Positions 6,932 through 14,550 of a stretch of DNA of 64,000 nucleotides are shown here, one piece after another. The notes below the pieces were generated by a model. It saw nothing but the letters and a program-made list of their open reading frames with translations, did not search any database and was not told the DNA's origin. The stretch's first letter is position 1, and every line of letters begins with the position of its first letter. This DNA is from Daejeonella sp. (GTDB taxonomy: Bacteria; Bacteroidota; Bacteroidia; Sphingobacteriales; Sphingobacteriaceae): positions 1 through 64,000 of the forward strand of contig NZ_JAUYSS010000056.1 of NCBI RefSeq assembly GCF_030695525.1, in the 5' to 3' direction. Made by a program: the position numbers and the translations under genes.

Positions 6932-7558
6932 ATGTTAATTGAACAATATTTAACAGATGATCAGGATCCAAGAACTGCAGAAAAAGTTTTGGGGAAACTG
7001 CGGGATATGCTTACCTCTGGAGAGGCTGTAATCTATCTGGCAATACAAAAAAAACCTGCCGTAACCCTGATTCCAGATTGCATTGCAGTGACCAATAAAC
7101 GCATTGTATTTTGTATTCCGGAAAATCTGGGCCTTACCATGACGTATAAAACATTCCCATGGGCAGAAGTAAAGGAGGTTTCTTTCAAAGAAGAATTCTT
7201 TGGATCAAAATTTATTACCATCCCACAGAGAGGTGAAAACATTGCAATCGATTTTATTCCTAAAGTCCAGGCACGTAAACTCTATCAGTTCTGTAATGAA
7301 CAATTGGAAAAAGCAAAGACCTTACCGGGATTTGAGGGAAAAATTAGCGTGCTACAGAATGAGAACCTGGGGGATGATTACGCATCTTACATTGAAGTTG
7401 AGGAGCAAAGTACATCCGCAATTACAGAGCTAAATGTTACAGATGCAGAAGATGAAATAACCCAAAAGCTACAGAAATTAAAAATACTGTATGAGAAACA
7501 ATTAATCAGCCAGGAAGAGTATGAAAATAAAAAGGCAGAAATCCTAGCCCGACTTTGA
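6932..7558 (+). CDS. PH-like (bPH) and SHOCT domain protein
   Basis: A 208-residue protein with no signal peptide or membrane helix. Residues about 25-120 look like a bacterial PH domain (b-strands around ECS-type words such as CIAVTNKRIVFCIP and TFPWAEVKEVSFKEEF). The last 35 residues form a SHOCT helical motif (QKLKILYEKQLISQEEYENKKAEILARL region), a short oligomerisation motif often found at protein ends. Such proteins probably bind membranes or partners; the role is unknown. The stop overlaps the lnt start by one base (TGATG), so translation of the two is likely coupled. Confidence 0.85.
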   Translation: MLIEQYLTDDQDPRTAEKVLGKLRDMLTSGEAVIYLAIQKKPAVTLIPDCIAVTNKRIVFCIPENLGLTMTYKTFPWAEVKEVSFKEEFFGSKFITIPQRGENIAIDFIPKVQARKLYQFCNEQLEKAKTLPGFEGKISVLQNENLGDDYASYIEVEEQSTSAITELNVTDAEDEITQKLQKLKILYEKQLISQEEYENKKAEILARL

Positions 7559-9186
7559 TGAAAAGAAATTATCAGCTCGCACTTTTAAGTGCTTTCTTAC
7601 TTTGGTTTGCCTGGCCACCTATACCCTTTAGCTCCCCGATTCTTCTGATAGCACTTGTTCCTATATTACTGGCGACAGAAAACATTATTGGAACTCAGAT
7701 AAAAAACAGGGGGAAATTAATATTCCGGACTACATTTCTTTGTTTTTTTACCTGGAATACAGCAAGTATCTACTGGGTTTTCAATTCCCTGAACTCGGCA
7801 ATGCCTACCTGGGTGGCGGCCATTATTTCACTGATTCCCTTTGGTTTGGGAGCAGTTTTAATGACCCTTGCATTCTGGTTATACTATAGACTGAGATTAA
7901 TCACTTCAAAGGTTTGGGCTTATGCCGGCCTCATTTGTTTCTGGATTGGCTATGAATACCTGCATCAGAGCTGGGACCTCGCATTCCCATGGATGAATCT
8001 TGGAAATGGATTCGCTACATCTCATCAGCTGATACAATGGTATGAATACACTGGTGTTTACGGAGGCACGCTTTGGATTCTACTTTCTAATATTTTATTT
8101 TTTGAGATCTGGTTAACACTTAAGACAGGTACACTTAAAATGAATAAAAATCGCTTGATTATACCCGTAACAATTCTGGTAACTCTACCCCTGCTCATCT
8201 CATTATTCATTTATCACAACCATACTGAAAAAGCAAATCCGGCCAATATTGTTGTCGTACAACCTAATATTGATCCCTATCAAAAATTCGGAACCATGCC
8301 ACCTTCTGAACAAATTACCCGTTTGATTCATCTTTCAGATTCATTAGGGCAAGCCAATACCGAATATTTTATCTGGCCGGAAACTGCAATATCACAGGGT
8401 ACAGAGGAGAAAACATTCAGAGGGGAAGAGAGCTTTAAAACAATTCAGAATTTTTTAACCAGATACAAAAATTCAAATTTGATATCCGGAATTGAGAGTT
8501 TTGCCATATATGATTCGGCAGAAACAGCAACTGCACGATACAACCAAAACAGTGGTATCTATTTTGATGTATTCAATGCTGCTGTATCTGTAGAGAATTC
8601 AGGCACCCTGCAATTCTATCATAAGTCGAAACTGGTCCCGGGAGTCGAACAAACCCCCTTTTCAAACGCATTATCATTTTTAAAGCCTGCCTTTGCCGCA
8701 TTTGGAGGAGCTACAGGGAGCTATGGAAAACAGGATGAACCTTCGGTATTCTATTCCCAAAGCGGAATCGGTTCTGCTCCCGTAATTTGTTATGAATCCA
8801 TCTGGGGCGAATATGTTGCAGACTATATTAAAAAGGATGCACAATTCATTGCAATCATTACCAATGATGGTTGGTGGGGAAACACCTCAGGTAAAGATCA
8901 GCATCTGGACTATGCAAAACTCAGGGCTATTGAAACCAGAAGATGGGTGGCAAGGTCGGCAAATACCGGAATTTCTGCTTTCATCAATCAGCGTGGTGAT
9001 ATTGTTCAGCGTACCAAATGGTGGGTTCAGGAAGCCCTTAAACAAGATATTAACCTGAATGAGGAATTAAGTTTTTATGTCAGGTATGGTGATTATATAG
9101 CCAGAGCCGGATCAATAGGGAGTGGAGTATTTGCCTTAATCTTAGTACTGACGAAATTAAAGAAACGAAAATCTAATGCATTATAA
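7558..9186 (+). CDS. lnt: Apolipoprotein N-acyltransferase
   Basis: Inner-membrane enzyme that adds the third acyl chain to the N-terminal Cys of lipoproteins, letting them be sorted to the outer membrane. The first ~220 residues contain about six to seven membrane helices; the rest is a periplasmic nitrilase-fold domain. Counting from the ATG at 7558 the catalytic residues are Glu275 (FIWPETA), Lys356 (FYHKSKLVPG) and Cys411 (VICYESIWG). A TTG three bases earlier is also possible, but the ATG overlapping the upstream stop is preferred. The many lipoproteins in this window (GldB, GldK, PorW, the Lys/Asp-repeat proteins) are likely substrates. A C-terminal helix is followed by KKRKSNAL. Confidence 0.95.
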   Translation: MKRNYQLALLSAFLLWFAWPPIPFSSPILLIALVPILLATENIIGTQIKNRGKLIFRTTFLCFFTWNTASIYWVFNSLNSAMPTWVAAIISLIPFGLGAVLMTLAFWLYYRLRLITSKVWAYAGLICFWIGYEYLHQSWDLAFPWMNLGNGFATSHQLIQWYEYTGVYGGTLWILLSNILFFEIWLTLKTGTLKMNKNRLIIPVTILVTLPLLISLFIYHNHTEKANPANIVVVQPNIDPYQKFGTMPPSEQITRLIHLSDSLGQANTEYFIWPETAISQGTEEKTFRGEESFKTIQNFLTRYKNSNLISGIESFAIYDSAETATARYNQNSGIYFDVFNAAVSVENSGTLQFYHKSKLVPGVEQTPFSNALSFLKPAFAAFGGATGSYGKQDEPSVFYSQSGIGSAPVICYESIWGEYVADYIKKDAQFIAIITNDGWWGNTSGKDQHLDYAKLRAIETRRWVARSANTGISAFINQRGDIVQRTKWWVQEALKQDINLNEELSFYVRYGDYIARAGSIGSGVFALILVLTKLKKRKSNAL

Positions 9187-10610: not shown

Positions 10611-11141
10611 ATGACTATGAACACTTCTTTTAAATTAATGAGCGCAGTATCCTTACTGGCTCTCGCATCCTGTAACAGTGGAAGCAAAGTTGAACCCGGA
10701 ACTTATGTAGATCTCAATACCGGAGAGTCAATTACGGTTATTGCCGATCCGGAAACCGGGTATGCCATCAACAGTGAAACCAGGAAACCGGTCTATCTTT
10801 ACGTCAATAGTCAAAAGGACACCATCTTCACAACCGGTATCGTTGTGAACGATAAGCTCATTGCTACTGAAGCTGGATACTATGAAGTTGATGACACCAA
10901 GGTAAAAGTTGATGATGATGAAATAAAAATCAAATATGACGATTACAAGAAAAAGGTTGATGGTGATGACTATAAAATTAAAGATGGCGATTACAAGCTG
11001 AAAGTTGATGGAGATGGCGATATAAAGATCAAAGACGGGGATTATAAAAAGAAAATAGATGCAGATGGTGATGTAAAGATCAAAGACGGGGATTCAAAAA
11101 CAAAAATTGAAGACGGAGTTGTAACAAAACAAAAAAATTAA
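10611..11141 (+). CDS. Lipoprotein with C-terminal Lys/Asp 16-17-residue repeats (copy A)
   Basis: A 176-residue predicted lipoprotein; the lipobox LASC puts the lipidated Cys at residue 21. A short conserved region (about 27-100: VEPGTYVDLNTGESITV through KPVYLYV and DTIFTTGIVVN) is shared with the next gene. Residues 101-166 are four tandem repeats of 16, 16, 17 and 17 residues with the pattern D-G-D-x-x-K-I-K-x-D-G-D-x-K-x-K-[VI]; acidic turns alternate with Lys/hydrophobic strands, suggesting a beta-rich rod with one very basic face. No known family is recognised. A second ATG two codons later is an alternative start. It is followed after 11 nt by its paralogue. Confidence 0.8.
   Translation: MTMNTSFKLMSAVSLLALASCNSGSKVEPGTYVDLNTGESITVIADPETGYAINSETRKPVYLYVNSQKDTIFTTGIVVNDKLIATEAGYYEVDDTKVKVDDDEIKIKYDDYKKKVDGDDYKIKDGDYKLKVDGDGDIKIKDGDYKKKIDADGDVKIKDGDSKTKIEDGVVTKQKN
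10911..11108 (+). repeat. Tandem 48-51-nt coding repeats in lipoprotein A
   Basis: Four in-frame repeats encode residues 101-116, 117-132, 133-149 and 150-166. Units 3 and 4 share an exact 20-nt word (AAAGATCAAAGACGGGGATT) 51 nt apart, so the newest duplication is recent or kept uniform by conversion. Confidence 0.8.
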
Positions 11142-11152
11142 ACTAAAAAAAA

Positions 11153-11647
11153 ATGAAAAACATTAAATCAATTCTATTTGCTGTAGTTATAGGTTCAGCA
11201 TTTATAGGATGTAACAGTAATCAGAAAAATGATATGGATGGTGATACAACTATGACTTCTGAGGAGTCTGAGTATTATGAGCCTGAAGCCAGAGTTGAAC
11301 CCGGTAATTATACCAATCTAAGTACCGGCAAAACAGTTTATATCATTATGGATCCACAAACAGGATGGGCTATCGACAGTATTGAAAGAGTTCCGGTAGA
11401 ATTCTACACCAACAATGCGGGTGATACTTTGTTTCAAACAGGTGTGGTTGTAAATCATGTGCTCAGGCAGGCAGATGGTAAATGGATGCTTGATGAAACT
11501 AAAGTAAAACGTGATGGTGATAAGCTCAAAATTAAATATCCTGATGGTTCTAAACTCAAAATTGACGGAGACGAGATGAAGATGAAAGATGAAGATGGTA
11601 AAATCAAGATCGATGGTGATAGTATAAAGGTGAAACCTAATAATTAA
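11153..11647 (+). CDS. Lipoprotein with C-terminal Lys/Asp repeats (copy B)
   Basis: A 164-residue paralogue of the preceding protein: lipobox FIGC with Cys20, an extra acidic linker (about 24-45, many Asp/Glu/Thr/Ser), then the same core (VEPGNYTNLSTGKTVYI, PVEFYTNNAGDTLFQTGVVVN). Three C-terminal repeats lie at 121-137, 138-153 and 154-164 (the last incomplete), with pattern DGDxxKIKxxDGxxKxKI. The two genes form an operon with an 11-nt spacer and end at a strong terminator (11675-11702). The pair suggests tandem duplication with later change in repeat number. Function unknown; outer-membrane or surface anchoring is likely but unproven. Confidence 0.8.
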   Translation: MKNIKSILFAVVIGSAFIGCNSNQKNDMDGDTTMTSEESEYYEPEARVEPGNYTNLSTGKTVYIIMDPQTGWAIDSIERVPVEFYTNNAGDTLFQTGVVVNHVLRQADGKWMLDETKVKRDGDKLKIKYPDGSKLKIDGDEMKMKDEDGKIKIDGDSIKVKPNN

Positions 11648-11674
11648 TAAAAGGTAAACCATATTTTTACAAAT

Positions 11675-11702
11675 AAAAAAACCTCCTTCGGGAGGTTTTT
11701 TT
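11675..11702 (+). terminator. Strong bidirectional rho-independent terminator
   Basis: The arm AAAAAAACCTCC (11675-11686), a TTCG tetraloop (11687-11690) and the arm GGAGGTTTTTTT (11691-11702) form a perfect stem with A and U runs on both sides. It ends the two-lipoprotein operon on the plus strand and could also stop nadE transcription coming from the other side. Confidence 0.95.
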
Positions 11703-11793
11703 ATTTAATAAAGCCTTGAAATCATAAATTCATCAGCTCCTCTGAATGACATGCTCTGTTTAAGCTTATGTTTTCCTATCGAGCTCACTATCA

Positions 11794-13521: not shown

Positions 13522-14550
13522 ATGAGACACCTTCAAATTTACCTGTTTTTTTTTATATGCCTTACAGCTCTTTCCTGCAATAACAAAAAGTCGCCGGATA
13601 TCAGCAAGATCAAATTAAATATTCCAATCGAGCGATTTGATCAGGATCTGAACAAGGTTAATCCAGATTCTATCTCAACAGAAGTTCCTGTTCTAAGAAG
13701 AAAATACACCTGGTTCTACGATGATTATATGGAAAAGATCATCAGCGCAGGATATACCAGGGACACCGCCTATTACACCAATCTCCGCACCATACTAGGA
13801 AACAAGGATTACCTCGAACTTAAGTCAACGGTAGCCCAAACATTCCCGGATTTAAATAAACAGAAGTTCGAACTGGACCAGGCATTCAGGTATATACGCT
13901 ATTACTACCCAAAGCAGAAATTTCCGCGCCTCATCAGCTTTATATCGGGATTTGCAGTACAAACACCTATTGGAAATGATTATATCGGAATTGGTCTCGA
14001 CATGTTCCTGGGAAAGAATGGTGATCGGTTCTATCCGGCATTGAGACAGAGCATTCCACAATACATTTCCAGAAGATTCAGTCCTGAGAATATTAGTCCC
14101 CGTGTAGTTGAAGCTTTCATCCGAGAAGAAATGTTCCCTGAAAATGATGCGGATCGAAATCTGCTTTCAAAAATGGTCTATAATGGCAAAATTCTATATT
14201 TTATGGATGCTGTCTTACCCGAAGTTCCAGATGTTCTGAAAATAGGTTATACCACTGATCAGCTCCAATGGTGTAAGGATTATGAAGCAGGAATTTGGGC
14301 ATATTTTCTGGAAAATGAGCTTTTATTTGAAAGCGATTATCTTAAAATTCAGAGGTATCTTGCAGAAGCGCCATTTACACCCGGGATTGGAGAAAACTCT
14401 TCATCAGCTCCCAAACTGGGAGTCTGGGCAGGGTGGCAAATCGTCAGGCATTACATGGAAAAGAATCCTGATATTAGTCTACAGCACCTAATGATTGAAA
14501 AGGATTCGCAAAAAATTCTTGCCGGATCCAAATATAAACCAAGAGATTAA
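13522..14550 (+). CDS. gldB: Gliding motility lipoprotein GldB
   Basis: A 342-residue lipoprotein (lipobox ALSC, Cys19) of the GldB family, needed for gliding in Flavobacterium johnsoniae but also present in non-gliding Bacteroidota. Family-like words include PIERFDQDLNKV, YPKQKFPRLISFISGFAVQ, DYIGIGLDMFLG and KLGVWAGWQIVRHYMEKNPD. The overall layout (a zinc-protease-like alpha/beta fold without an obvious HExxH) fits. gldC, which often follows gldB, is not here; a patatin gene follows after 11 nt instead, probably in the same transcript. Its exact role in secretion or motility is not known. Confidence 0.92.
   Translation: MRHLQIYLFFFICLTALSCNNKKSPDISKIKLNIPIERFDQDLNKVNPDSISTEVPVLRRKYTWFYDDYMEKIISAGYTRDTAYYTNLRTILGNKDYLELKSTVAQTFPDLNKQKFELDQAFRYIRYYYPKQKFPRLISFISGFAVQTPIGNDYIGIGLDMFLGKNGDRFYPALRQSIPQYISRRFSPENISPRVVEAFIREEMFPENDADRNLLSKMVYNGKILYFMDAVLPEVPDVLKIGYTTDQLQWCKDYEAGIWAYFLENELLFESDYLKIQRYLAEAPFTPGIGENSSSAPKLGVWAGWQIVRHYMEKNPDISLQHLMIEKDSQKILAGSKYKPRD

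What the first reader, a model, noticed from the sequence alone, without database searches (positions are those of the whole stretch)
10611..11647. Paired lipoproteins with Lys/Asp beta-repeats
Two adjacent paralogues carry 4 and about 2.5 copies of a 16-17-residue repeat (DGDxxKIKxxDGDxKxK[VI]). Alternating Lys/hydrophobic strands and acidic Asp-Gly-Asp turns suggest a small beta-solenoid or rod with one very basic face and possible divalent-cation-binding turns. No known family is apparent. Units 3 and 4 of copy A share a 20-nt identical word, so repeat number is probably still changing.
Basis: partly seen in the sequence, partly recalled or inferred. Interest (0 to 1): 0.58.

Follow-up and report, generated by a model that had tools for sequence, protein, structure and literature searches.

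The report
Lysine-ladder beta-sheet lipoprotein pair
Two neighbouring bacterial genes encode membrane-anchored proteins from an unnamed family whose tails are predicted to fold into a thin, rod-like beta-sheet with rows of lysines along one face, a design rarely seen in nature, whose function is unknown but testable.

Summary
Two adjacent genes (10611-11141, 11153-11647; Daejeonella-like genome) encode lipoproteins with an unnamed ~70-residue N-domain and a KxK/DGD repeat tail. No Pfam or NCBIfam model reaches its cut-off on the pair. Relatives: 24 of 301 Sphingobacteriaceae genomes and 26 of 244 in a Chitinophagaceae sample. In 49 tails, 629 of 674 strand-core slots hold Lys (Arg 6), and spacing alternates 7 / 9-10 in 211 of 239 steps (shuffles at most 159). 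Lys-Lys lags 7 and 9 are enriched and 8 depleted: antiparallel hairpins, not a simple solenoid. AlphaFold2 (pLDDT 81) gives an open single-layer beta-meander, nearest to the CPAP G-box and OspA. The model implies two lysine ladders on one face, a mostly hydrophobic other face and Asp-Gly turns; tails are neutral overall (mean -0.7). Function is inferred: an envelope-anchored rod that probably binds anionic polymer or its partner.

The parts
10611..11141 (+). Gene A: lipoprotein, 176 aa, short membrane tether (8 residues between Cys21 and the N-domain)
10611..10673 (+). A: signal peptide to lipobox cysteine (LASC, residues 1-21)
   Evidence: sequence
10698..10907 (+). A: conserved N-domain, residues 30-99 (G.YvdL.TG...D..TG....S.T..PV..Y....DT...TG.VVN)
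10899..11138 (+). A: KxK/DGD repeat tail, residues 97-176, 9 strand cores; predicted single-layer antiparallel beta-meander
11023..11043 (+). first copy of the 21-nt identical word between units
11074..11094 (+). second copy of the 21-nt identical word
11153..11647 (+). Gene B: lipoprotein, 164 aa, long membrane tether
11153..11212 (+). B: signal peptide to lipobox cysteine (FIGC, residues 1-20)
   Evidence: sequence
11213..11302 (+). B: acidic Ser/Thr/Asp/Glu linker of 30 residues between Cys and N-domain
11303..11509 (+). B: conserved N-domain, residues 51-119
11510..11644 (+). B: KxK/DGD repeat tail, 5 strand cores
11671..11706 (+). hairpin with T-run after B, likely terminator of the A-B unit (16 bp, -19.5 kcal/mol, z -7.0); the simple scan did not list it
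   Evidence: negative

Best explanation
A and B belong to one unnamed family of Bacteroidota envelope lipoproteins, encoded together, probably as one transcript. Each has a lipid anchor, a tether (short in A, long in B), a conserved small beta-rich N-domain and a tail of tandem beta-hairpins. The tail forms an open, single-layer antiparallel beta-sheet: a stiff flat rod whose length is set by the number of hairpins. In the predicted register, lysines line up in two columns on one face, hydrophobic residues are mostly on the other, and Asp-Gly turns line both edges, so the rod is electrically neutral overall and can be held together by Lys-Asp salt bridges and hairpin hydrogen bonds without a large core. 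Most likely work (inferred): a membrane-anchored spacer or binding strip. The hydrophobic face pairs with a second copy or with the partner paralogue, and the lysine face holds an anionic polymer of the envelope or matrix (lipopolysaccharide, acidic polysaccharide or DNA). Shown here: gene pair, family, domain order, lysine rule, alternating spacing. Predicted: the fold and its faces. Inferred: salt bridges, pairing, ligand, location.
For: Family and architecture. The tail alone as query gives 31 matches in 151 genomes, 30 of them at family genes already found by earlier profile searches, and 1 in a 76-aa frame (G150:C255) also listed and not resolved. Lysine rule: 629 of 674 slots Lys, 6 Arg; 302 of 337 strand cores KxK (0.90) against 0.34 (max 0.40) in 200 shuffles. 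The slots were chosen by a score that favours K, so the controls that do not depend on it matter: K-K lags 2, 7, 9, 16 (z 17 to 20) and 18 (z 9) enriched, lag 8 depleted (z -5.9); tail K:R 735:48 against 283:114 in the N-domains and 6186:3558 in 239 background ORFs. Antiparallel hairpins: short and long spacings alternate in 211 of 239 steps (shuffles mean 136.5, max 159). Fold: pLDDT 81.2, pTM 0.57, tail blocks 76-93; VIA Z 10.3 to CPAP G-box 4lzf_A (77 residues, 2.2 A), Z 7.8 to OspA 3cka_A (83 residues, 1.7 A). Faces: the register taken from the model's DSSP pairs Lys with Lys across 8 of 9 turns. Pair conserved: A then B order in 5 Daejeonella genomes and short-then-long tether in 4 genomes of genus g19.
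Against: AlphaFold2 can produce confident sheets from repeats. pTM is only 0.57, and the first, shallower alignment gave five models spread from 37 to 71. Foldseek TM-scores are low (0.42 at best's first rows), and VIA Z of 7 to 10 may reflect a common arrangement. Phage and contractile-injection spikes match almost as well (Z 9.3, 8.2). The face opposite lysine is hydrophobic at its centre in only 242 of 337 cores, and in 36-67% of cores in many tails, so a buried pairing face is not universal. Tails are charge-balanced, which weakens strong polyanion binding. No ligand, partner or cell location was shown; the export-signal check was inconclusive. Codon bias does not show high expression for A (63rd percentile; B 93rd).
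Confidence: 0.5

Rival explanations
1. Zwitterionic spacer: the neutral K/D sheet binds nothing in particular. It is a soluble, non-sticky, stiff stalk that keeps water or distance at the envelope.
For: Tail net charge mean -0.7, sd 2.9 over 49 tails; Asp flanks the Lys slots; OspA, a comparable single-layer sheet, is rich in Lys and Glu (PMC12183334, passages).
Against: Random K and D/E placement would do for neutrality, yet Lys is held in exact slots and Arg is avoided (6 of 674).
Confidence: 0.25
2. Trimeric spike: three tails wind into a beta-prism like phage and VgrG-type spikes, with the hydrophobic face inside and lysines outside.
For: Structural matches 9cuy_Y (Z 9.3), 3pqh_A (Z 8.2), 7aef_q (Z 7.3); weak profile matches to VgrG model NF041249 in 6 of 32 members, best 8.4e-6, with 15 bits against a 100-bit cut-off for A; weak phmmer hits to phage spike proteins (E 0.07 to 1).
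Against: Spike repeats are recalled to be regular octads; here K-K lag 8 is depleted and 7 / 9-10 alternate. Several tails have few hydrophobics on the would-be inner face.
Confidence: 0.12
3. The tail is intrinsically disordered low-complexity sequence; the sheet is a modelling artefact.
For: Very high charge, low complexity; the shallow alignment gave discordant models.
Against: Fixed K spacing and alternating short/long turns in relatives from two bacterial families, with most length changes falling in turns; pLDDT 76-93 over the tail with 32 sequences.
Confidence: 0.13

Closest known systems
CPAP/SAS-4 TCP10 (G-box) domain
   Same: Open single-layer antiparallel beta-meander of tandem hairpins; turns often carry a PDG motif (PMC3776556, section 7 and discussion read); best VIA match Z 10.3, 77 residues, 2.2 A.
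   Different: Animal centriole protein; no lysine ladder is described in the sections read; binds a proline-rich peptide through residues along one edge; no CPAP chain in the PDB sequence searches.
OspA of Borrelia (central single-layer sheet)
   Same: Bacterial lipoprotein with a single-layer sheet, rich in Lys and charged residues (PMC12183334, passages); Z 7.8, 1.7 A over 83 residues.
   Different: OspA's sheet joins two globular regions; that it lacks 16-17-residue tandem units is recalled; no OspA chain in the sequence searches.
MORN repeat proteins
   Same: Tandem hairpins in an elongated sheet; likened to the CPAP G-box by Dali in PMC7725318 (passages).
   Different: 23-residue repeat with consensus YEGEWxNGKxHGYG; here 16-17 residues, and no MORN model listed.
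Phage/VgrG-type spikes (phi92, PhiTE, contractile injection systems)
   Same: Stacks of short strands; VIA Z 7 to 9.
   Different: Spacing rule differs from the recalled octad; lipid-anchored; the window's neighbours that were checked are not phage or secretion genes.

Membership tests
Single-layer beta-meander (CPAP G-box / OspA fold class) | Tandem beta-hairpins with short D/G turns | tested here: met
   Alternating 7 / 9-10 spacing in 211 of 239 steps; DSSP of the predicted model
Single-layer beta-meander (CPAP G-box / OspA fold class) | Open sheet, both faces exposed, no core | tested here: inconclusive
   Model and fold matches agree, but the centre of the non-Lys face is hydrophobic in 242 of 337 cores, so it may be covered by a partner
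OspA homologue | Sequence relation to OspA | tested here: not met
   No OspA chain among PDB sequence matches at E up to 10
MORN repeats | 23-residue MORN consensus | tested here: not met
   No MORN model in Pfam scans of the pair or of 32 members at the thresholds used; period 16-17
RTX calcium beta-roll | Nonapeptide GGxGxDxUx, period 9 (recalled) | tested here: not met
   Spacing 7 / 9-10, not 9/9; no RTX model listed
FapA beta-solenoid (PF03961) | Score above Pfam cut-off | tested here: not met
   17.9 bits against cut-off 31; 1 of 32 members at E up to 0.1
VgrG/gp5 spike | Octad repeat (recalled) | tested here: not met
   K-K lag 8 depleted, z -5.9
VgrG/gp5 spike | Trimer | not testable with these tools
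   no multimer prediction
Bacterial lipoprotein | Signal peptide with lipobox cysteine | tested here: met
   A LASC, B FIGC; pattern in 43 of 50 family proteins (A and B counted); of the other 7, 5 have a Cys after the hydrophobic stretch and 2 do not (by eye)
Surface-exported lipoprotein (LES of PMC5080379) | Acidic residues close to the Cys (about +3 to +6) | tested here: inconclusive
   First acid at +8 in both A and B; the 6 of 10 own-genome SusD-like proteins that could be read have theirs at +2 to +6; counts in +2..+13 overlap between short- and long-tether groups
Calcium-binding protein | Binds Ca2+ at DGD turns | not testable with these tools
   no assay

The most novel reading that the evidence does not exclude
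A family of bacterial lipoproteins carries a natural freestanding single-layer beta-sheet whose length is varied by adding hairpins (0 to 12 strand cores). It displays a near-crystalline two-column array of lysines (about 4.8 A between strands, by general beta geometry, recalled) that acts as a molecular ruler or strip for a linear anionic polymer, with the short- and long-tether paralogues working as a pair at two heights above the membrane.
Probability: 0.25. Interest if true: 0.7.

Novelty: new variant of a known kind. Interest (0 to 1): 0.45.

Why it matters
The authors of the CPAP structure called a freestanding meander sheet without a core unique among natural proteins to their knowledge (PMC3776556). 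A bacterial lipoprotein family that builds such sheets from tandem hairpins would give a simple, evolvable natural example, with many lengths to compare, and the strict choice of lysine over arginine makes a clear, testable prediction about ligand or salt-bridge use.

Tried and rejected
Solenoid: one strand per rung would give a constant lag, and the lag alternates; the fold matches are open sheets and spikes. A two-strand-per-rung roll is not strictly excluded by the spacing alone. RTX, MORN and FapA membership: see the membership table. Weak Pfam and NCBIfam matches scatter over unrelated families; the most frequent, PG1828_fam_lipo (15 of 32 members), matched residues 1-36 of B, the signal-peptide end, below its cut-off. 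High expression: codon adaptation is only average for A. Conserved operon as a clue to function: the window's neighbours (Lnt, TIM-barrel protein, NAD synthase, GldB) are shared only with the closest relative G015 among the stretches compared. Homologues outside the two families: the phylum sample added none beyond the genus (2 of 395); the class sample gave 4 weak partial matches inside frames of 565 to 2110 aa besides two Daejeonella-group genomes (6 of 395). These samples are thin, so absence elsewhere is not shown. Separate origin of the short-tether genes of g19: the tree puts them among the long-tether clade, but joining them with the other short-tether genes is not rejected (p-AU 0.49, 72 columns). 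Viral relatives: not searched, the call failed (74). Literature searches gave nothing of use.

Full report
What is there. The window lies in a Daejeonella-like genome (Sphingobacteriaceae): three of the four named loci that matched A are Daejeonella, at 64-90% identity, and G015 and L013 share contig length and position. Genes A (10611-11141) and B (11153-11647) are on the + strand, 11 nt apart, followed by a strong hairpin with a T-run at 11671-11706 (the simple terminator scan did not list it). Both encode a signal peptide with a lipobox cysteine, then a tether, a conserved domain of about 70 residues and a lysine/aspartate repeat tail. They are the only two matches in the genome at E up to 10.

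Is it a known family? No Pfam-A or NCBIfam model reaches its cut-off on the pair. Scans of 32 relatives gave only scattered weak matches. No PDB sequence matched better than E 0.07. One literature search for the genus name with 'lipoprotein' found no paper; the library is open-access only.

Relatives. Genus: 7 of 20 genomes. Family sample: 24 of 301. A family sample centred on the genome of the Chitinophagaceae MAG locus L016: 26 of 244. Phylum sample 2 of 395; class sample 6 of 395, of which 4 weak and partial. From 37 stretches I collected 50 family proteins. Every one matches the N-domain profile, because that is how they were picked. The independent test is the tail alone as query: 31 matches in 151 genomes, 30 at family genes already found by the earlier profile searches, 1 in a 76-aa frame not resolved. 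So the tail was not seen on other domains in that sample. One member (L099) has the N-domain and almost no tail (9 residues), so the N-domain can exist without repeats.

The repeat rule. In 49 tails (L099 left out) I placed strand cores by a dynamic-programming score favouring KxK at spacing 7 to 12. Of 337 cores 302 are KxK (0.90); the same scoring on 200 shuffled sets gives 0.34, at most 0.40. The slots hold K 629, T 19, E 12, R 6 of 674. Tests that do not depend on the scoring agree: K-K pairs are enriched at lags 2, 7, 9 and 16 (z 16.7, 20.5, 20.0, 19.5) and 18 (z 9.1), and depleted at 1, 3, 4, 6 and 8 (z -5.9 to -13.1). Tails hold 735 K and 48 R, N-domains 283 and 114, 239 background ORFs of the own genome 6186 and 3558. 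Rows are related, so these z-scores overstate independence, but both bacterial families show the bias (439:20 and 296:28). Short (7-8) and long (9-12) spacings alternate in 211 of 239 steps, against a mean of 136.5 and maximum of 159 when spacings are shuffled within each tail. That is what alternating tight and wide hairpin turns give in an antiparallel sheet.

Fold. AlphaFold2 on 13 sequences gave pLDDT 71 with discordant models; on 32 sequences 81.2, pTM 0.57, tail blocks 76 to 93. Both show a strand every 7-10 residues in the tail. Foldseek and VIA rank CPAP G-box structures, OspA, MORN proteins and phage spikes. Among the best are Z 10.3 over 77 residues at 2.2 A (CPAP 4lzf_A), Z 9.3 over 77 at 2.3 A (phage PhiTE 9cuy_Y) and Z 7.8 over 83 at 1.7 A (OspA 3cka_A). 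Using the turns of the model, neighbouring strands pair Lys with Lys across 8 of 9 turns, which puts lysines on one face and V/I/L/Y with a few K on the other. This is a derived register, not coordinates.

Charge and faces. Tails are nearly neutral (mean -0.7, sd 2.9, range -6 to 8): the lysine face is balanced by Asp at the turns. The opposite face is hydrophobic at its centre in 242 of 337 cores, from 36% to 100% by protein; B is 100%, A 56%. So B's sheet could bury that face against a partner; A's has K in 2 and T or Q in 2 of 9 central slots.

The pair. Tether lengths are bimodal: 2-8 residues in 18 proteins, 20-114 in 32 (two of the 32 lack a lipobox cysteine, so theirs are nominal). In five Daejeonella genomes and four g19 genomes the short-tether gene comes first and the long-tether gene second. 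The tree splits 14 short-tether proteins (from both bacterial families) from the rest with 99/99 support, so the split is old. The four g19 short-tether genes fall on the other side, but joining them to the 14 is not rejected (p-AU 0.49). With 72 columns this is weak.

Location in genomes. In 10 of the 18 Sphingobacteriaceae genomes with a wide stretch (six genus codes) the gene lies within four genes of rpsJ or rplC in the str-S10 ribosomal cluster, on the opposite strand (S10, L3, EF-G and S12 confirmed by Pfam in one of them). The window's own copy is elsewhere, and its rplC contig shows no family gene in the 3.2 kb upstream that the contig holds. This suggests the ancestral site, not a function.

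Repeat turnover. A has 9 strand cores in 5 of 5 Daejeonella A genes; B has 5 in four genomes and the B-like gene 7 in three. Against G015 each A unit is closest to its own counterpart (0.97, 0.92, 0.85, 0.82, 0.95). So the array is not turning over between these close relatives, despite the 21-nt word. Over the family it ranges from 0 to 12 cores.

Mechanism. I commit to an envelope-anchored, salt-bridge-stabilised single-layer rod with a lysine strip, likely working beside its paralogue, and probably binding anionic polymer. Family, architecture and lysine rule are shown; the fold is predicted; salt bridges, ligand, pairing and cell location are inference. The surface-export test was inconclusive: acidic residues begin at +8 in both A and B, later than in the six own-genome SusD-like proteins that could be read (6 of 10, acids at +2 to +6), and the published signal was defined in other Bacteroidetes (PMC5080379, passages).

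Noticed in passing
L085, L089, L091, L092, L099, L100, L101, L103 (and L086, L087 beside rpsJ): Family genes sit between or beside the str and S10 ribosomal protein clusters, antisense to them, in 10 of 18 Sphingobacteriaceae genomes examined.
   Followed up: partly
L085:8006-8620 and relatives; L121:18282-18836: A secreted unknown protein (cluster 15; no Pfam hit) accompanies the same site in 5 loci; a similar-looking protein lies upstream of rplC in the window's own genome (by eye).
   Followed up: no
L111:6523-7290 and L117:6320-7021: Chitinophagaceae-sample members whose linker is itself a long repeat of the type RRSDTSMRR (114 and 91 residues).
   Followed up: no
L103:6405-7052: A Gly/Ser-rich low-complexity insert inside the conserved N-domain.
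   Followed up: no
window 7555-9186 and 13522-14550: Apolipoprotein N-acyltransferase (Lnt) two genes upstream and a GldB gliding lipoprotein downstream; the arrangement is shared only with G015 among the stretches compared.
   Followed up: partly
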